Assembly: GCA_017561665.1 (NCBI GenBank)
Contig: JAFZBQ010000020.1
Location: forward strand, 1-32,097
Length of the DNA stretch: 32,097 bases
Source: Bacteroidales bacterium
GTDB lineage: Bacteria; Bacteroidota; Bacteroidia; Bacteroidales; UBA932
Direction: 5' to 3'
Of this stretch, positions 3,069-29,673 are shown piece by piece (the first letter of the stretch is position 1; each line of letters begins with the position of its first letter). The position numbers and the translations under genes were made by a program. The notes below the pieces were generated by a model. That model was not told the origin of the DNA. It made no database searches and saw nothing but the letters and a program-made list of their open reading frames with translations.

Positions 3069-4424
3069 ATGAAAAAGTTTTTGACAGTGTTGATGATAGC
3101 TATCTCGCTAGCATTTGTTTCTTGCGCAGATGAACCTGAGGTGAGCATCAACAAGCAGATGGAAGAGATGGATTACAAAGGCGGCGTCCTTGAGTTTGAC
3201 GTTACAGCCAACTGTGACTGGGAGATTATCTGCGACAGCGACGACCAGGATCTTCTCACCGTCTCACAGTGGACCGGAGGCCCCGGCACCCAGACGGTCT
3301 CCGTGGTTGTTGACCCCAACGACTCACACGCTATCCTCAAGCACTATTTCACCGCTGTCGCCCATGGCAAAAAGAGAGATGCCCTCCAATCGATGATATT
3401 GGTGCAGGGAGCCCCGGCATACGTTCAATTCAGCAAAAACTCTTTCAAGACAGATTATATCGGCGGTGAGTATAAATTCACCGTATCCGCAAACTTCCCG
3501 TGGGAAATCACCGTGGACGGAGAGGGTGTTACAGTGGAACCCACCTCCGGAGAGGCGGTGATTGAGGAGGAAGAAGATCCTACGGCGCCAAAAACCGATG
3601 ATGACGAAGAGGATGCACCCAATGTAATTACCGTAACGATAGATGAATACGAGGGCGATTCACCCAGGACATTCCTGTTGCATGTCACCGCAGTCGGGGA
3701 CGATGCTGTCGTGGAAGATGACCTTGTAATCACCCAGGATTCCCCTGCGCTTATGATTGGTAACAAGGAGTATCGCATCAAGAAGATGGGTGACGGCCGC
3801 TGGTGGATGGTTGAGAATCTTTGCTTCTTCAACAAAGGCATCACTATCGGCGACGGACAGTGCGGGGTGTGGTATCCTTGCAGCGACTTGGCCGCTGAGC
3901 CCGATCCGACAACCGACGGCATCCTTGCCAAGGGTCTGCTCTATTCCGATGCAGTTGCTTTCAACACCACCATCACCAAGACTACCGCTAAACGGCAGGA
4001 AGGTGCCCAGGGCATCTGCCCCAGCGGTTGGCATATCCCTACACTGGAAGAGTACATGGCATTGGTGGGTAAGTGTAACAACTCCGCCGTCCCCGTAAAT
4101 GAGGATGCTCCATACTACGACAAATCCCGCAACAGCGGTTCACTTTCCATGCTTAAGGCAGCAGGCTTTGTAAGCAATCATGCAGGCTATGTACAGGGTA
4201 GTGGTGCCGGCTATGCAAACGGCTTCACTACACAGGGTTATCTGGCTCGACTTAACAAAGTTACCACCACTTATTTCTTCTGCTCCAACCATTATACGGA
4301 CCAGATGTGGTATGCCCTTGTCCTGAACGAAGTAAACAACTCTGCAAACGTGGGCTATATGAACAACTACGTTGCGGCAAGGCCCTTCGCCGGCAGCATC
4401 CGTTGTATCAAAGACATCAAATAG
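3069..4424 (+). CDS. Surface lipoprotein with two BACON domains and a FISUMP domain
   Basis: This 451-residue lipoprotein begins with a signal peptide and the lipobox FVSC (Cys19). Residues about 22-115 and 117-224 each read as BACON-like immunoglobulin folds: the ANCDWEI and ANFPWEI strands and the closing LVQGAP and ITQDSP segments are characteristic. The second is interrupted by a very acidic insertion (about 167-183). Residues 229-451 form a domain of the Fibrobacter succinogenes major paralogous (FISUMP) type, with GRWWMVENL, GICPSGWHIPT and a terminal SIRCIKD. BACON domains are thought to act in carbohydrate or mucin attachment; the FISUMP domain has no firm function. The small gene at 4431 follows after 6 bases, so the two are probably one transcript. 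Confidence 0.85.
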   Translation: MKKFLTVLMIAISLAFVSCADEPEVSINKQMEEMDYKGGVLEFDVTANCDWEIICDSDDQDLLTVSQWTGGPGTQTVSVVVDPNDSHAILKHYFTAVAHGKKRDALQSMILVQGAPAYVQFSKNSFKTDYIGGEYKFTVSANFPWEITVDGEGVTVEPTSGEAVIEEEEDPTAPKTDDDEEDAPNVITVTIDEYEGDSPRTFLLHVTAVGDDAVVEDDLVITQDSPALMIGNKEYRIKKMGDGRWWMVENLCFFNKGITIGDGQCGVWYPCSDLAAEPDPTTDGILAKGLLYSDAVAFNTTITKTTAKRQEGAQGICPSGWHIPTLEEYMALVGKCNNSAVPVNEDAPYYDKSRNSGSLSMLKAAGFVSNHAGYVQGSGAGYANGFTTQGYLARLNKVTTTYFFCSNHYTDQMWYALVLNEVNNSANVGYMNNYVAARPFAGSIRCIKDIK

Positions 4425-8551: not shown

Positions 8552-10330
8552 ATGAGATACATCAAAAAACTTACGTTGGCTCTGCTGGTTGTCTTGACAG
8601 CGCTGCCGGCCTTTGCCGACAGCGTTACGCCGAAGCGGGCCGCGGAGGTGGCGGTTGCCTTCTTTGCCGGCGGTGCCAAACGCGGTGCCGGGGATGCCGG
8701 TCTCAAGGCGGCGGAGGTCTCTTCGGATGCATATATGGCTTTCAACCGTGACGGCGGCGGATTTGTCGTAATCGCCCTCAACGATGCGGTGACGCCCGTT
8801 CTGGCATATTCGCCGGAGGGGTCATTCCCTGCAGAAAAGGATATGCCAGCGCCGATGGCGTGGTGGTTTGCCAATCTGGCGGAGCAGATAAATGCCCTCG
8901 GCGATGGCGCAACGGCCTCTGAGGCGGTGCGTGCCTCCTGGGAGAATCCGGAGCCAGTGAGGGGGGAATCAAAACTCTATGAAACGGCGCTGTGGAGCCA
9001 GGATGCACCGTACAACAACAATTGTCCGGTTGTGGGCGGCATCCATTGCCTTACGGGGTGTGTCGCCACCGCAGGTGCCATTATAGCCCGCTTTTTCCAA
9101 TGGCCCGACGCCGGTGTGGGGACAATTCCCGCCAAACCTTCGAATGTTTCCGGGCCCGACTATCCCGCACATAGCCTTGGACACTCCTACGATTGGGACA
9201 ATATGCCGCTCAGCTACAGCTCATATTCATCAGCCCAGGCAGAGGCAGTGGCGACCCTCATGTACGATATGGGCACTATGGCAAAGATGGCTTACGATCC
9301 CGATTTCTCTTCGGCCAGTGCGGCGGATCTGCTGACCGGTCTCAAGGAGTATATGAAATATAATAAAGGGGCATATCAGGTAAGCAGGACTGAGTATTCG
9401 GATGCCCAGTGGAGTCAATTGCTGAAGAGTATCCTGGATGATTACGGCCCGACTGTTTACAGTGGGCTGGATCCGCTATATGGCGGGCACTCGTTCGTTT
9501 TGGACGGTTATGATGAACAGGGCCGCTTCCACTTCAACTGGGGTTGGGGATTTAGCAATTGTTACTGTGCCATAGACAATCTTGTGCCGGAAGGAATGGT
9601 ATACAATTTCTCTGAAAGACACCAGGTGATGGTGGGTCTGGTACCGGACTATGATGGAACCAGTACCGGCAGGGACATCCTCCGATTCACCCGGATGAAG
9701 GATAATAACGGTAATGAATATAACGGTCTGTCCGCTACCGTGACGGATTTCGTGGAGAATGAGGAATTTGTTTGTATAGCAGCCGCCTGGGGCCCCATGG
9801 CCAATGCATTCAACGGAACACTCTACTTTTCTCTTTACGACAAGAACGGCAATTTCAAGCAGGATATCAGCGAAGGTTTTGAACGTTCCCTGCCTTTGAA
9901 CGGATTCAACCTTATCGGGGGTTCTTGTATGATTACCACAACCATCGCTCCCGGCGACCGTATCAAGGTGCGATACGTGGGTCAATATAACGAAGGCATT
10001 ATTGATATCGGTGCCGGTTGTGTTTTGGAGATTATTGTCATGGAAGATACCGGCGGCGGTGACGAACCCGACCCCACCGCGGGCTATACTGCGGCGGAAA
10101 CGGCGGCATCGACGGCGCTCAGTTATGCTAAATCTACGTCGATACTCACACTGACGTTTGCCCATCCGGCCAACTGGGCGGTGAAGCATTCCAGCGGCGT
10201 AACTGTCGCAAGCGGTGTTGCAGCCGCCGGCGGCCCTGTGGCCTTGGACCTGTCGGGCTGCGCATCAGGCACTTACATCATATCCATCGGCAGCGCCGAC
10301 GATCCGTTTACTTTCACCATCACCAAGTAA
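8552..10330 (+). CDS. Secreted C10 family (streptopain-like) cysteine peptidase
   Basis: This 592-residue secreted zymogen has a signal peptide (cleavage expected after Ala22), an inhibitory propeptide of the Spi type (about 23-145), then the peptidase domain. The catalytic Cys170 lies in TGCVATAGA and His313 in GGHSFVLDGY, followed by FNWGWG, as in streptopain and the Bacteroides C10 enzymes. The region after about 370 holds a beta-sandwich and a C-terminal stretch with LDLSG and GTYIISI. That stretch resembles the C-terminal sorting or DUF3244-type tails found on such proteins; which one is unclear. The family cleaves host proteins extracellularly. The next gene begins 11 bases downstream and is probably co-transcribed. 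Confidence 0.9.
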   Translation: MRYIKKLTLALLVVLTALPAFADSVTPKRAAEVAVAFFAGGAKRGAGDAGLKAAEVSSDAYMAFNRDGGGFVVIALNDAVTPVLAYSPEGSFPAEKDMPAPMAWWFANLAEQINALGDGATASEAVRASWENPEPVRGESKLYETALWSQDAPYNNNCPVVGGIHCLTGCVATAGAIIARFFQWPDAGVGTIPAKPSNVSGPDYPAHSLGHSYDWDNMPLSYSSYSSAQAEAVATLMYDMGTMAKMAYDPDFSSASAADLLTGLKEYMKYNKGAYQVSRTEYSDAQWSQLLKSILDDYGPTVYSGLDPLYGGHSFVLDGYDEQGRFHFNWGWGFSNCYCAIDNLVPEGMVYNFSERHQVMVGLVPDYDGTSTGRDILRFTRMKDNNGNEYNGLSATVTDFVENEEFVCIAAAWGPMANAFNGTLYFSLYDKNGNFKQDISEGFERSLPLNGFNLIGGSCMITTTIAPGDRIKVRYVGQYNEGIIDIGAGCVLEIIVMEDTGGGDEPDPTAGYTAAETAASTALSYAKSTSILTLTFAHPANWAVKHSSGVTVASGVAAAGGPVALDLSGCASGTYIISIGSADDPFTFTITK

Positions 10331-12959: not shown

Positions 12960-13068
12960 CGTGGAGGGTAACGTGTTGGTAGAGAATAGATAACGCAACG
13001 ACACCCCTAAGCCGCGATGGGGGGTGCTATTGTGGAATTGGCTGTATTTCAGGAGGTTTGCCTCCACG
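12960..13068 (+). repeat. 109-bp inverted-repeat element, copy A
   Basis: The element begins CGTGGAGGGTAA (12960-12971) and ends TTTGCCTCCACG (13057-13068). The outer 8 bases of the two ends are perfectly complementary. A central hairpin pairs CACCCC (13002-13007) with GGGGTG (13021-13026), and a second small hairpin GGAGG-TTTG-CCTCC occupies 13052-13065. Immediately outside are a T-tract on the left and an A-tract on the right. A second copy lies at 16706-16814 in the opposite orientation, with the same length and hairpin register. No tRNA, rRNA or known riboswitch pattern is recognised. It may be a miniature mobile element or a structured control element. Confidence 0.7.
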
Positions 13069-13508
13069 AAAAAAAGATTTGGAGACCACAATTCTGTTCC
13101 TTTCAGGTATCCAACTGCAGACCGCTTTCATATGCTCAACTGCACAGGATTTCCCTATCTCTGACCCGGACGGAACAAAAACAGCTTGCCGATTACATTA
13201 TTCGGTCATACAACTGTATCGACTATGCAGTGGTGTCCGACTACTTTGGCGGGTACGAGAAAATGATCATCGCAATCAATACTACCAAGGGAAGCGAATA
13301 TGACATTCCGGAGGATTTCACGGCGGGGTCAGACCTTATTTATTCAAAAATGACACAGTTTTTGCTAGACACAGGTGTAGTAGACAGTGTTGACTTGCTG
13401 CTCCATCTGCCGGAAGACATTCGCCGGTCTCTCATTGCCCCCGTATGTACAGCCACAGGTGCCAGCATTAAAAAAGCAGCCAAGTATCTTCACGTAAAAA
13501 TTGATTAA
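13017..13508 (+). CDS. Unrecognised protein starting inside the 109-bp element
   Basis: This open frame of 163 residues is not recognised. The only upstream ATG lies in the loop of element A's hairpin; the next in-frame ATG is at 13263, so the true start is uncertain. The plausible protein core begins near LTRTEQKQLADYI. The tail, GASIKKAAKYLHVKID, reads like a short helix-turn-helix and suggests a DNA-binding or transposase-derived fragment. No catalytic motif such as a HUH pair is present, and no signal peptide. The stop overlaps the -7 box of the next gene. It could be a remnant of a longer gene or a small regulator. Confidence 0.5.
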   Translation: MGGAIVELAVFQEVCLHEKKIWRPQFCSFQVSNCRPLSYAQLHRISLSLTRTEQKQLADYIIRSYNCIDYAVVSDYFGGYEKMIIAINTTKGSEYDIPEDFTAGSDLIYSKMTQFLLDTGVVDSVDLLLHLPEDIRRSLIAPVCTATGASIKKAAKYLHVKID

Positions 13509-13513
13509 CTTTG
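13506..13513 (+). promoter_or_regulatory. -7 box for the 87-residue membrane protein gene
   Basis: TAACTTTG matches the consensus exactly and overlaps the TAA stop of the preceding ORF. The ATG at 13522 begins 8 bases later, so the predicted transcript has a leader of only a few bases. Confidence 0.5.
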
Positions 13514-13521
13514 TAGTTACT

Positions 13522-13785
13522 ATGGAACAACAAGCAAATAAAACATCCGGCAGGAAGCTGGTACGCTGGATACCGTATGCCGGAATCGCCGCCGCCATCA
13601 TAGTGGTGGTGCTGGCCATCGGAAACAAGGACAGGGAACTCATCGACACTTTTGACGATCCCGCACTGGCGTACGCCCAGGTAGAGGACGCCTTCAATCA
13701 GATATCAAGCAAGATGGCCCGCGGCATAGAAATTGCCTCGGAATCAGACACTACCGCTAAAATAAATGAACCTGAAACAGAATAA
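13522..13785 (+). CDS. Short membrane protein, anti-sigma-operon type
   Basis: This 87-residue protein has one membrane helix (about 15-35) and a short outer tail with DTFDDPALAYAQVEDAFNQI. That DP-x-x-AY-x-x-x-E pattern is familiar from small proteins next to ECF sigma factors and DUF4252 proteins in Bacteroidales. The ATG at 13522 is chosen over an upstream ATG (13501) because it follows the -7 box and gives the usual short cytoplasmic N-terminus. The cytoplasmic part is only about 15 residues, too short for a classical anti-sigma domain. It is followed after 4 bases by the DUF4252 gene and is surely co-transcribed with it. Confidence 0.65.
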   Translation: MEQQANKTSGRKLVRWIPYAGIAAAIIVVVLAIGNKDRELIDTFDDPALAYAQVEDAFNQISSKMARGIEIASESDTTAKINEPETE

Positions 13786-13789
13786 AGAA

Positions 13790-14275
13790 ATGAAAAAGAT
13801 ACTTACAATAGCAGTCCTGCTGCTCATATTCATCTGCGCCGACGCACAAAACGGCAAGAATCTCTACAAGAAGTATTCGGAAGCAGAAGGGGTAAGCGCC
13901 GTTTACATTTCCCCCGCAATGTTCCGGATGATGGGCAAACTTCCCGACCTGAACGTAGAGGGACAGAGTGTCAACCTCGCCCCCATAATCAAAACGATGT
14001 CTGGTCTTTATCTCATAAACAGCGAGAATCCAGAGATTAACGCCGGCCTGGCGAAAGAGGTGGAGAAGTTCATTTCCAAGGGCGACTACGAACTCCTGAT
14101 GGAGACCAAAGACGCCGGCGAGACGGTGCGCATGTACACCGTGGGCACCGAAACGGTGGTCGAGAGTTTCGTGATGATTGCATCCGAAGAAAACCAGACT
14201 ACCTTCATCTGCCTCGACGGCAAGATGAACCGCGAAGAGTTGGAAGCCATCCTCGCCGAGAAGATGCAGGAGTAA
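13790..14275 (+). CDS. DUF4252 domain exported protein
   Basis: This 161-residue exported protein has signal peptide MKKILTIAVLLLIFICADA, followed by a DUF4252 domain covering the rest. Hallmarks are the ISPAMFRMMG segment, the GLYLINSE strand and the repeated short strands before a C-terminal helix. The start at 13790 is preferred because the upstream in-frame ATG (13766) lies within the preceding gene. DUF4252 proteins are usually encoded with an ECF sigma factor and a small membrane protein; their function is unknown. Here the membrane protein is present but no sigma gene is visible. The gene converges on the glycosidase-like gene with 2 bases between stops. Confidence 0.8.
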   Translation: MKKILTIAVLLLIFICADAQNGKNLYKKYSEAEGVSAVYISPAMFRMMGKLPDLNVEGQSVNLAPIIKTMSGLYLINSENPEINAGLAKEVEKFISKGDYELLMETKDAGETVRMYTVGTETVVESFVMIASEENQTTFICLDGKMNREELEAILAEKMQE

Positions 14276-14277
14276 TC

Positions 14278-16680
14278 CTAGCGCAGCCTCAATTCTTTGC
14301 TTTCAAACGGTATCGGATAGGTCGACATCCACACTGTGGGTGTGACCTCTTTTGTGGCGGCCGAGACGGCCCAGACTTCTATCGTCTTGCCCAACATATC
14401 GGGCGTAAGCGGATAGTAGTACGTGTAATTGCCTTCGGTATCGTTCAGCCAGACCTGCCAGCCCCAAGGGTTGCAGGTGTAGGACGGGGCGCGGTCGGGA
14501 CAGCCCCTCCACTCACCGTCTATCTTTAGGGCAGCCCAGGCGCCTTCTCGGGGGAACTTGCCGTCGATGGCGATACACAGGTATGCGCCCTGGGGAATCT
14601 CGTCGAGGGTGATTTCTTTAGTAAAGCAGTATCCCTTCCACTCTTCGAACTCGCCCTTCTTCATCCAGTAGGTCGGGAAGAGGTTGGTGGCGTGCCAGGC
14701 GGTGCGGTCCACCTGTTTGCCGTCGCGGAACCCTTTGATTTCGGTGATGCGCAGCGGGGTGAAATCGAGGTGGAAGTAGCGGAATTCTCCAACCCCGCTC
14801 AGGTCAATCTCCATCTTGGTATCGCTTAGGAAGGTAACTGTCTTCCAGCTTTTTAAGTCCTTTGAGACATACGCCGTGGCGCCCTCCTCTATGTAGTATG
14901 GCTGCATCGAAAATTCGTCGTATGTTTCGATTACAAGCTTATCCAGGGTTGTCACCTCTCCCAAATCCAGATTGAGTGCGGTAGTGAACGGTTTGAAGAA
15001 CTCGTCGCGGATGGCCACGGAGAAGGATGTGCCCAGGTCGTCGTCGAACATAAAGCGGTCCCAGCAGTCACGGATGGTGAACGAACGCTGGTTGAACAGG
15101 GCGTCGCGGGCTGCCTGAACCTGCGCGATATTTGTGGGTCCGGAGCGCTCCAGCGAACGGAGTTCCAGCGCATTGTTGTCGGCGGCATAGGTCATCGCAT
15201 CGTAGATGCACTGCCCTTCGCGAGGATATTCGGTCGGCTGCAGTTCGGCCAGTTTTCTGTGGTACGGCTGCTTGAGTTTATCCCCCGGGAACTTTATCCT
15301 CATAGAGCGACCCTTGGCCAGGGCGTCGGCCCATTTGCCGTCGAGCGAGGCTTTTTTGAATGTGCCCTTGACGACCTTTGCGTTGTAGCTCTGGCCGGGC
15401 ATGCCCAGCAACTTCACGGTGACTTCATCGCCAACCTTGTCGTTTACAATTTGATACGGGATGCCGCTGATGGCCACTTTGTCCTTTTCGGGAACGGTGG
15501 TGATCTTTATGAGTGCGGCGCGGAACGGCAGCACCTCAACCTCTATCGATTTGCCGTAAGCATAGCTGCCCAGATCGTAGATATAAGGATGATACTGACG
15601 GACTTGAACCTTCTTCGCAGGGTCCAGACCGGTCTCTTCACCCAGGTTGACGATGTATTTCACCGGCTCCCAGGTGAGGTTGCGGAGCGTCAGGAAGCGG
15701 GTCGTGCCGTCACCGCGGCTGAGCGCTTCCGGGCCGTACTGCTCTTCCGGCAGACGCTTGGCATTAACCAGGATGTCACGGTACTGACGGTGGAGGTTGT
15801 AGATGAAAGCCAGCATCGGATATTCGTCGTCCCGCAGCAGCCAGGGATTGGCGTAAATCTGCGGCGCCATAATCAGCTCGCGGCCGAACGCCTGCAATAT
15901 CAGGTCGTCTTCCCAATAATCGAGGCAGGAACTAAGGCACACGCCGTGGTCTTCGGTCAGACGGGTAAGGTTTTCGGGCGCCTTGCGGGCTATCGCCTGG
16001 CCGCGGTGGTGCGGCGCCGTCATCGTATTTGTCATAAAGACATCGATGTAGGTCTCGTCGCCGCCCAGCAGATAGGTCGTGGAATACTTGGTGCCGGGGC
16101 CAAGCTTCAGGCGATGGTTCAGCAGCACGAAATCGGGCCGTATTTCGCGTACCTTTGCCATCATCTGCTCGAAATAATCGTATTTGGAGGGGCGCAGCTG
16201 GCCGCAGACGCCGTCCATCTTGAACAGCCCGAGGTTGTAGTCGCGTACAAACTCCCACACCATATCCATTCTCTCGGAAGCCTCTTCCTCGGTATCGCCA
16301 AAGCCGTCCGGGCCGCCCCAGACACCCAGGCTGGCGCCGAATCCCGCCGCCTTGTCGCGTATGGGTCCCAGTCCGTGCGGGTACTGGTTATGGAATCGTT
16401 CTGAGCGTGTAGAGCCGTAGAAATGACGGCCGTCCAGCATTCCGGCATCAAAGGCGAAAATGTCCAGCTCCATCCCGTAGGTGTCGTACAGCCACTGGAA
16501 AAACTCGAGCTCGGCGTAGGTCTGCGCCTCGCTGGGTCCTTCGTTGGTGTGGCTCATCCAGGTGAAATATTCCGCCTTCGAGGGCGTGGTCTCTTCGGCC
16601 CCCGCTATGGGGTATGTCTGGGCATTGACGCTTGTAAACGCGACGGCAGCCATCGCTGCCAGTAGAATCATCTTTTTCAT
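14278..16680 (-). CDS. Secreted clan GH-D-like (alpha-galactosidase-like) glycosidase
   Basis: This 800-residue exported protein has a signal peptide ending VNA before Gln. The first 350 or so residues look like a TIM barrel related to clan GH-D (GH27/GH36): GVWGGPDG, then LFKMDGVCG with Asp156 at the expected nucleophile position, then LLNHRLKLGPG. An all-beta domain follows, then a discoidin-like segment (about 500-640, LDLGEVTTLDKLVIETYDEF) and a C-terminal jelly roll of the GH2 N-terminal type. The start at 16680 is preferred to the ATG at 16755, because a -7 box lies just upstream. The enzyme class is inferred; the acid/base residue is not identified. Element B lies directly upstream. 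Confidence 0.7.
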   Translation of the reverse strand: MKKMILLAAMAAVAFTSVNAQTYPIAGAEETTPSKAEYFTWMSHTNEGPSEAQTYAELEFFQWLYDTYGMELDIFAFDAGMLDGRHFYGSTRSERFHNQYPHGLGPIRDKAAGFGASLGVWGGPDGFGDTEEEASERMDMVWEFVRDYNLGLFKMDGVCGQLRPSKYDYFEQMMAKVREIRPDFVLLNHRLKLGPGTKYSTTYLLGGDETYIDVFMTNTMTAPHHRGQAIARKAPENLTRLTEDHGVCLSSCLDYWEDDLILQAFGRELIMAPQIYANPWLLRDDEYPMLAFIYNLHRQYRDILVNAKRLPEEQYGPEALSRGDGTTRFLTLRNLTWEPVKYIVNLGEETGLDPAKKVQVRQYHPYIYDLGSYAYGKSIEVEVLPFRAALIKITTVPEKDKVAISGIPYQIVNDKVGDEVTVKLLGMPGQSYNAKVVKGTFKKASLDGKWADALAKGRSMRIKFPGDKLKQPYHRKLAELQPTEYPREGQCIYDAMTYAADNNALELRSLERSGPTNIAQVQAARDALFNQRSFTIRDCWDRFMFDDDLGTSFSVAIRDEFFKPFTTALNLDLGEVTTLDKLVIETYDEFSMQPYYIEEGATAYVSKDLKSWKTVTFLSDTKMEIDLSGVGEFRYFHLDFTPLRITEIKGFRDGKQVDRTAWHATNLFPTYWMKKGEFEEWKGYCFTKEITLDEIPQGAYLCIAIDGKFPREGAWAALKIDGEWRGCPDRAPSYTCNPWGWQVWLNDTEGNYTYYYPLTPDMLGKTIEVWAVSAATKEVTPTVWMSTYPIPFESKELRLR

Positions 16681-16685
16681 ATCAT

Positions 16686-16717
16686 CAAAGGTAATGATTT
16701 TTTGCCGTGGAGGCAAA
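16686..16717 (-). promoter_or_regulatory. Predicted promoter of the GH-D-like gene, -33 box inside element B
   Basis: On the minus strand TTTG (16717-16714), a 20-base spacer and TACCTTTG (16693-16686) form a good Bacteroidales promoter. The TTTG is part of the terminal repeat of the 109-bp element. The ATG at 16680 lies only 5 bases past the -7 box. Confidence 0.55.
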
Positions 16718-16814
16718 GACGCTGGTACCCAGCAAAATGCAAAAAGATACCCCATACGTTAAACAGGGGGTGTCTTCGTGTAAATTACTGAGGAATAGGT
16801 GTTTACCCTACACG
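16706..16814 (-). repeat. 109-bp inverted-repeat element, copy B
   Basis: Read on the minus strand, it starts CGTGTAGGGTAA and ends TTTGCCTCCACG. The ends match copy A at 11 of 12 and 12 of 12 bases. GACACCCC and GGGGT of the central hairpin fall at the same offsets as in copy A, with no gap anywhere in 109 positions; 62 positions match by hand count. The intergenic stretch beyond it, towards the dehydrogenase gene, holds a further imperfect hairpin (16814-16833) but no T-tract, and nothing else that I recognise. Confidence 0.7.
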
Positions 16815-29593: not shown

Positions 29594-29673
29594 CCCAATG
29601 GTGGAAAATCGGCCCCATTGGGTACAAAATCGGCCCGAATCGTACCCAATGGAAGCGTTTTGACCCCATTGGG
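29594..29673. repeat. Nested palindromes between convergent genes
   Basis: Two 8-bp stems occur in tandem: CCCAATGG (29594-29601) with CCATTGGG (29615-29622), and CCCAATGG (29645-29652) with CCATTGGG (29666-29673), each with a 13-base loop. A third pairing, GGGTAC (29620-29625) with GTACCC (29642-29647), would compete with both. The word AAAATCGGCCC occurs twice. No T-tract follows, so it is not a standard terminator. Confidence 0.75.

What the first reader, a model, noticed from the sequence alone, without database searches (positions are those of the whole stretch)
12960..16814. Two copies of an undescribed 109-bp element with conserved ends and hairpin
12960-13068 (plus) and 16706-16814 (minus) are both exactly 109 bp. 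Ungapped hand alignment gives 62 identities. Identities concentrate in the two ends (CGTGKAGGGTAA and TTTGCCTCCACG) and in a central hairpin at identical offsets (CACCCC at 42, GGGGT at 61). The unconserved loop and flanks show they are diverged copies, not a recent duplication. They could be a miniature mobile element with 12-bp inverted ends or a structured RNA or control element. I do not recognise it from any described family.
Basis: seen in the sequence. Interest (0 to 1): 0.72.

Follow-up and report, generated by a model that had tools for sequence, protein, structure and literature searches.

The report
Fixed-length mobile hairpins with transposase remnant
The two look-alike 109-letter stretches are copies of a small, probably mobile DNA element that can fold into a hairpin and goes with its own kind of transposase; the window even keeps a broken piece of that transposase beside one copy, and the same pairing recurs in uncultured gut and rumen Bacteroidales.

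Summary
Observation confirmed: 12960-13068 and 16706-16814 are both 109 bp and share 62 of 109 bases. They belong to a large family: I compiled 124 copies from 18 of 26 genus genomes, 120 of them 108 or 109 bp long. Terminal stem and central hairpin both show paired changes, which fade at the element's edges. Copies lie mostly outside ORFs, favour convergent gene ends and lack target duplications; three copies of one genome are missing from a syntenic relative.

Key link: a ~310-aa Y1 (HUH) transposase whose predicted fold is closest to the REP-associated transposase 4er8. Of 80 such genes from named MAGs, 58 have an element within 300 bp and 40 have one on each side; leaving out 11 probably seen before, 49 and 34 of 69. 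Window 13119-13508, beside element 1, is the surviving C-terminal part of this transposase.

Best reading: REPIN-like elements (REP doublets) of a divergent Bacteroidales RAYT lineage; the window holds a decayed "REPtron" plus a dispersed copy. A new variant of a known kind. Mobilisation by the transposase is inferred, not shown.

The parts
12960..13068 (-). Element 1, 109 bp (A-to-B orientation of the family is the minus strand). Tag CGTGGAGG at both ends.
   Evidence: R1 85.5 bits, E 9.7e-17 (it is in the training set)
16706..16814 (+). Element 2, 109 bp (A-to-B orientation is the plus strand). Tags CGTGGAGG and CGTGTAGG. Lies 25 bp before the likely ATG (16680) of the minus-strand gene 14278-16680.
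   Evidence: R1 90.6 bits, E 6.2e-18 (in the training set)
13119..13508 (+). C-terminal remnant of the ~310-aa Y1 transposase (129 residues and stop); the HuH-Y catalytic half is missing
   Evidence: translation; 58% identity over 128 aa to the intact L018 protein, E 4e-52; profile A4 positions 180-309, E 9e-48
12997..13031 (.). Central hairpin of element 1 (family positions 38-72)
16743..16777 (.). Central hairpin of element 2 (family positions 38-72); terminator-like on the minus strand (16768-16750)
13042..13052 (-). Inner box of end A of element 1 (CTGAAATACAG)
   Evidence: position 17-27 box
12976..12986 (+). Inner box of end B of element 1 (TTGGTAGAGAA, degenerate)
16722..16732 (+). Inner box of end A of element 2 (CTGGTACCCAG)
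16788..16798 (-). Inner box of end B of element 2 (CTATTCCTCAG, degenerate)

Best explanation
The two stretches are copies of a non-autonomous mobile element of the REPIN kind (an inverted REP doublet), served in trans by a RAYT, a REP-associated Y1/HUH tyrosine transposase. Each end has a specificity tag (CGTGGAGG in the window) that is complementary to the other end, and an inner conserved box CTGAnnnnCAG; a central hairpin joins the halves; total length is held at 108/109 bp. Inferred mechanism: when one strand is exposed, for example on the lagging strand, the element folds into terminal stem plus central hairpin, the HuH-Y domain cuts at the foot of the structure guided by the tag, and the strand is joined at a new site without target duplication. 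Shown here: anatomy, gene association, tag correlation, presence/absence. Not shown: cleavage, strand transfer, role of the C-terminal domain. In this genome the CGTGGAGG subfamily has probably lost its own transposase, since only the C-terminal part of one is found, beside element 1. Settled copies tend to sit between convergent genes, where the central hairpin may act as a two-way terminator (inferred).
Against: No cutting or transposition was observed, and no clean empty site: the presence/absence junctions carry further indels. 22 of 80 transposase loci have no R1 hit at E <= 0.001 nearby, and L170 and L171 in the genus have none at E <= 0.1. The intact transposase of the window's own genome (C4) shares a tag at 7 of 8 bases or better with 0 of 17 dispersed copies there. 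The inner box, which would be the REP palindrome, shows no covariation. Eight genomes with elements have no strong transposase match (compare), though all are drafts. Many similar copies share flanks between species, so recent movement is not frequent. NCBIfam's REP transposase model scores below its cut-off.
Confidence: 0.86

Rival explanations
1. A structured RNA or cis-acting RNA element (small RNA, leader, or a dedicated two-way terminator family) kept for its RNA structure and spread by ordinary descent.
For: Paired changes in the central stem; bias to convergent gene ends (44 convergent to 5 divergent, against 9 to 11 in element-free gaps); at pnp-rnfA the element sits where relatives have terminator-like hairpins; one strand of element 2 scores as terminator-like.
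Against: Symmetric ends with exact edges, subfamily tags that follow the transposase lineage, adjacency to the transposase, different subfamilies in one genome, presence/absence in relatives, no Rfam match. A terminator does not need the tags or the fixed length.
Confidence: 0.07
2. The 108/109-bp units are the left and right ends of a whole transposon (element-gene-element) that moves as a block like an IS or the 'TIRtrons'; solitary elements are leftovers of deletions.
For: 40 of 80 genes carry an element on each side at short distance (median 66 bp upstream, 20.5 bp downstream). RAYT-like genes flanked by terminal inverted repeats are described (PMC3733652 section 16). In the window one element sits beside a gene remnant.
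Against: Each flanking element is itself a complete symmetric unit. Dispersed elements outnumber the gene: 124 compiled elements against 14 strong matches covering more than half the protein in the same 26 genomes. The two flanking copies of a gene differ (78-82% identity in four genus loci).
Confidence: 0.1
3. A conventional MITE of a cut-and-paste DDE transposase.
For: Short terminal inverted repeats and small size.
Against: No target duplication over 123 copies; partner is a Y1 enzyme; central stem covariation is not expected of a plain MITE.
Confidence: 0.02

Closest known systems
REPINs of Pseudomonas fluorescens (Bertels and Rainey 2011, PMC3116915; abstract and passages seen)
   Same: Inverted doublet of conserved ends around a spacer whose length and hairpin capacity are kept, compensatory changes, extragenic, tied to a RAYT.
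   Different: Unit 108/109 bp instead of 71 bp between 16-mers (GI); tag differs between subfamilies; inner palindrome lies 16 nt from the edge; lone ends not clearly found (8 of 9 end matches in the own genome are doublets; the ninth is no R1 element).
RAYT / TnpA-REP of E. coli (structure 4er8)
   Different: 14% identity over the alignment; about 130 further C-terminal residues, for which a moderate model (pTM 0.44) had no significant PDB match.
TnpA-REP subclass 2.6 of Bacteroidetes (= RAYT group 5; PMC6006769, section 12 and passages seen)
   Same: Bacteroidetes lineage; genes flanked by 'atypical secondary structures' with copies elsewhere in the genome.
   Different: Published motifs NH[LIV]H and YIH[QN]NP and 179 aa; here DH[IL]H, YL[YF]NNP and about 305-315 aa. 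Their structures are in a supplement that I could not read, so overlap of the repeats is open.
TIRYT / TIRtrons (PMC3733652, section 16 and passages seen)
   Same: RAYT-like genes flanked by inverted repeats, some self-complementary and repeated in the genome.
   Different: Described motif GGGGWSAS is not the tag here; 20 of 26 examples were later placed in subclass 2.1 (PMC6006769 passage).

Membership tests
REPIN (REP doublet) | Two conserved ends in inverted orientation around a spacer | tested here: met
REPIN (REP doublet) | Hairpin capacity with compensatory changes and kept length | tested here: met
   caveat: the search model contained these pairs and this length
REPIN (REP doublet) | Mostly extragenic | tested here: met
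   34 of 124 more than half in an ORF, against 83% of random windows (crude ORF calls)
REPIN (REP doublet) | Linked to a RAYT gene | tested here: met
   58 of 80 loci; 11 of 13 in the genus; window remnant
REPIN (REP doublet) | GT[AG]G tetranucleotide (canonical REPs; by PMC6006769 absent in classes 2.6 and 3) | tested here: inconclusive
   GTGG at positions 2-5 in 3 of 4 window ends, but the second base is G in 142 and C in 95 of 240 family ends
REPIN (REP doublet) | Each REP forms its own hairpin at the tag | tested here: inconclusive
   the CTGAnnnnCAG box is palindromic in many copies but lies inward and does not covary
REPIN (REP doublet) | Cutting and rejoining of single-stranded element by its RAYT | not testable with these tools
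   needs purified protein
RAYT (REP-associated Y1 transposase) | Y1 HUH catalytic fold with HuH and Tyr motifs | tested here: met
   Pfam Y1_Tnp 31 and 35 bits, cut-off 23; H65, H67, Y125 invariant in 68 proteins; fold match
RAYT (REP-associated Y1 transposase) | NCBIfam NF047646 REP_Tyr_transpos at its curated cut-off | tested here: not met
   35.0 and 37.1 bits against 80; so a divergent relative, not filed under that equivalog
TnpA-REP subclass 2.6 (RAYT group 5) | Motifs NH[LIV]H, YIH[QN]NP, about 179 aa | tested here: not met
   DH[IL]H, YL[YF]NNP, about 305-315 aa
MITE of a DDE transposase | Target-site duplication | tested here: not met
   matches of flanks at chance level for k = 2 to 10 over 123 copies
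Rfam RNA families | Match to a covariance model | tested here: not met
   no match over the elements at E <= 1

The most novel reading that the evidence does not exclude
A distinct class of RAYT system: a ~310-aa Y1 transposase with an uncharacterised C-terminal domain serves a measured 108/109-bp unit in which the paired terminal tag, not a local REP hairpin, carries specificity; the inner CTGAnnnnCAG boxes are read by the extra domain; and the central hairpin persists because the host uses settled copies as two-way terminators between convergent genes.
Probability: 0.35. Interest if true: 0.72.

Novelty: new variant of a known kind. Interest (0 to 1): 0.58.

Why it matters
In the papers seen here REPIN/RAYT systems are worked out mainly in Proteobacteria; for the Bacteroidetes genes only 'atypical secondary structures' are mentioned (PMC6006769). 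Here is a defined element with sharp edges, a tag that changes with the transposase lineage, and many natural variants in one genus. That makes the recognition code, and why such elements persist, directly testable. A share of the intergenic hairpins at gene ends in rumen and gut Bacteroidales MAGs may be such elements, so this also helps annotation.

Tried and rejected
Rfam: one match at E <= 1, elsewhere in the window and probably chance (mir-4818, E 0.18). tRNA/tmRNA: 0. Phase-variable promoter: considered from memory because of the inverted ends; dropped because many copies lie between convergent genes. Integron attC: considered from memory, not formally tested. DDE MITE: no target duplication. 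Local hairpin of the inner box, or pairing of the two inner boxes: neither covaries (240 ends, 120 elements), although single copies can fold so. RNAalifold alone kept only 7 pairs of the central hairpin.

Order-wide R1 search: 3 of 295 genomes at E <= 0.001, the own genome plus two with 94- and 89-bp hits at E 6.5e-4 and 9.7e-4, probably chance; strict filters and 13 scored candidates per genome, so it says little. C-terminal domain: 0 PDB matches at E <= 0.001, model of moderate quality; the second-look alignment covers mainly residues 1-238 of the full protein. A profile search of PDB sequences gave only weak hits to IS200-type transposases (E 0.01-0.06). Paper searches: two papers, 34 fourteen, 37 eighteen (several off-topic), 76 and 78 mostly off-topic, 77 one paper on P. 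gingivalis (passages do not describe this element), 104 three off-topic.

The 124 elements are those listed or held: one search's list was cut, and G015:C238:992-1100 (cut by a locus end) and G000:C64:19534-19641 (weak, no locus) were left out. R1 contained the terminal and central pairs and a length of 109, so later counts lean that way; against this, its 12 training sequences had no two-sided change in the terminal stem, whereas the wider set has many. In one search the third base pair outside the element reaches z 2.0. ORF calls are crude; 40 of 124 contexts were undetermined. In one search, G020's pnp-rnfA gap gave a weak R1 match (E 0.085), perhaps a degenerate element. The within-genome tag test is mixed (54 of 126 own against 367 of 1693 other).

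Full report
OBSERVATION. Aligned without gaps (12960-13068 plus, 16706-16814 minus) they share 62 of 109 bases, mostly in both ends and around the central hairpin. A pattern of the two ends, allowing 70-100 bases between its halves, hits three places in the 2.2-Mb genome; all are 109 bp, and the reversed pattern hits none. The third copy fills the gap between two convergent genes that I read as pnp and rnfA from their protein sequences (recall, not a family search). Among 40 other genomes one, G023, has a match, again 109 bp. At fixed length and up to two mismatches 3 of 26 genus genomes have matches: six in G000, three in G023, two in G015.

FAMILY. From 12 copies I built a covariance model, R1. 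It has matches in 18 of 26 genomes of the genus at E <= 0.01 and at 20 places in the window's own genome at E <= 1. From the listed and held matches I compiled 124 elements without duplicates: 62 of 109 bp, 58 of 108, two of 110, one of 107, one of 126. By the tag at the ends they fall into subfamilies: CGTGGAGG (window type; 12 elements with at least one such end, in G000, G023 and G015), CGTGGCA, GCTGGAG/CCTGGAGG, GCTGGC, CGTG[AT]TTT, CGTGGCGC and a few others. Shape and length are kept while sequence changes.

ANATOMY. Over the 120 elements of 108/109 bp the two ends are complementary and change together (positions 1, 2, 5, 6, 7: z 6-12), and so does the central stem (positions 40-52: z 4-12). 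In the 12 training copies 13 of 29 pairs had two-sided changes (12 of them central), the covariation score was 0.229 against 0.131 in shuffles (0 of 500 as high), and slid structures reached at most 0.116. Just outside the element the signal drops (pairs 1 to 6 outside: z 1.3, -0.1, 2.0, -0.6, 0.8, 0.6). Note that complementary change of the ends could also arise because one protein reads both ends, without pairing. Between the stems each end holds a conserved box CTGAnnnnCAG (positions 17-27). It covaries neither within itself nor with the other box, so it looks like a recognition sequence; a local hairpin is possible but not supported by this test. In the own genome 8 of 9 matches to the CGTGGAGG end lie in complete elements; the ninth, on C7, shows no R1 element.

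TRANSPOSASE. 21 of 26 genus genomes have a Y1_Tnp match. One type, about 305-315 aa, starting MKGR, with motifs DH[IL]H and YL[YF]NNP, has elements on its flanks. Its profile gives 14 strong matches (E < 1e-60) in 10 of 26 genomes. Thirteen of these loci were scanned with R1: 11 have an adjacent element (one only at E 0.017), two (L170, L171) have none, and none of seven loci of other Y1 type has one. I then fetched 80 related genes from MAG contigs titled Bacteroidales or Bacteroidia, many from rumen and gut (the best 80 of 110 found), and ran R1 on them. With hits at E <= 0.001, 58 of 80 have an element within 300 bp: 48 upstream, 50 downstream, 40 both. 101 of 110 hits lie in the 61 kb near the genes and 9 in 159 kb beyond; 58 hits are 108 bp and 39 are 109 bp. 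Eleven of the 80 are probably genus loci already seen; without them it is 49 of 69, with both sides in 34. In L188 the flanking elements carry the window's CGTGGAG tag. Across 48 non-redundant loci transposase similarity follows tag similarity (Mantel r 0.52, 0 of 5000 permutations), and for 30 of 37 classed loci the nearest transposase has the same tag class. Within genomes the test is positive but mixed: flanking elements match dispersed copies of the same genome in 54 of 126 comparisons and of other genomes in 367 of 1693; for the window genome's intact gene on C4 it is 0 of 17 for each of its two elements.

THE WINDOW. 50 bp after element 1, window 13119-13508(+) encodes the C-terminal 129 residues of this transposase: 58% identity to the intact L018 protein, E 4e-52; profile positions 180-309, E 9e-48. 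Of its 20 best matches among the 80 genes, 15 have TGGAG-tagged elements, two TGGC, one another tag and two none. The catalytic half is missing. In intact loci an element lies upstream of the gene at a median of 66 bp, so element 1 plus remnant is best read as a decayed REPtron. Element 2 is a dispersed copy before a minus-strand gene.

MOBILITY AND CONTEXT. Elements at G017:C33 2345, 8153 and 8708 are absent at the syntenic places of G018, and the last two also of G006; R1 finds nothing in the fetched G018 and G006 stretches, and one different element in G020 near the third site. The junctions are not clean empty sites. At pnp-rnfA the window's genome has 114 nt, 109 of them element; G023, G021, G015, G016 and G020 have 66, 69, 76, 89 and 117 nt with terminator-like hairpins. 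R1 finds no element there in the first four and a weak match (E 0.085) in G020. There is no target duplication over 123 copies; the base next to an element is G or C in 202 of 246 cases. 34 of 124 copies lie more than half inside an ORF, against 83% of random windows; neighbours are convergent in 44, tandem in 35, divergent in 5 and undetermined in 40, against 9, 37 and 11 in element-free gaps (Fisher p 1.8e-4 for convergent against divergent). Many closely similar copies in different species have homologous flanks, which means descent rather than recent movement.

INTERPRETATION. Shown: family, structure, edges, gene association, tag correlation, presence/absence. Inferred: that the transposase cuts and moves the element as single-stranded DNA; that the tag acts as guide (by analogy: a guide role of GTAG was supported for Marinomonas REPs, while similar attempts failed for E. 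coli and Stenotrophomonas; PMC8266576 passages); that the C-terminal domain reads the inner box; that the central hairpin terminates transcription.

KNOWN KINDS. It fits the REPIN description of PMC3116915 (passages), which also mentions a 'clover' fold as a possible substrate. It differs from canonical REPs in the place of the palindrome and in lacking a universal GT[AG]G, and from subclass 2.6 in protein motifs and length (PMC6006769). I found no description of this element in the searches; that library lacks most subscription papers, and supplements could not be read. Hence: new variant of a known kind.

Noticed in passing
window 29594-29673: Four copies of CCCAATGG/CCATTGGG in alternating orientation form a compact palindromic intergenic structure; the Rfam mir-4818 match there (E 0.18) is probably chance.
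   Followed up: no
L264 (G017:C33) 4195-4310 and 9970-10070: Two other dispersed hairpin repeats with a shared core CTTCGCTCCGGGCCAG...CTACGCGAA; the first has more than 20 short matches in G018. Not the element described here.
   Followed up: partly
L022, L028, L032, L034: Another Y1 transposase type (NHVH, YVxMNP, about 300-400 aa) in the genus. R1 finds no element in L022, L028 and L032; in L034 one lies about 1.3 kb away.
   Followed up: partly
G017:C62 (L019/L169) and G007:C57 (L181): Apparently broken copies of the transposase (split frame; one internal stop) next to elements, as in the window: the gene seems to be lost while elements persist.
   Followed up: partly
flanks of 123 elements: The base directly next to the element is G or C in 202 of 246 cases; possibly a target preference or an uncounted part of the end.
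   Followed up: partly
G012:C178 (L171) and G013:C40 (L170): Relatives of the transposase without an R1 element nearby; they may serve elements too different for this model.
   Followed up: no
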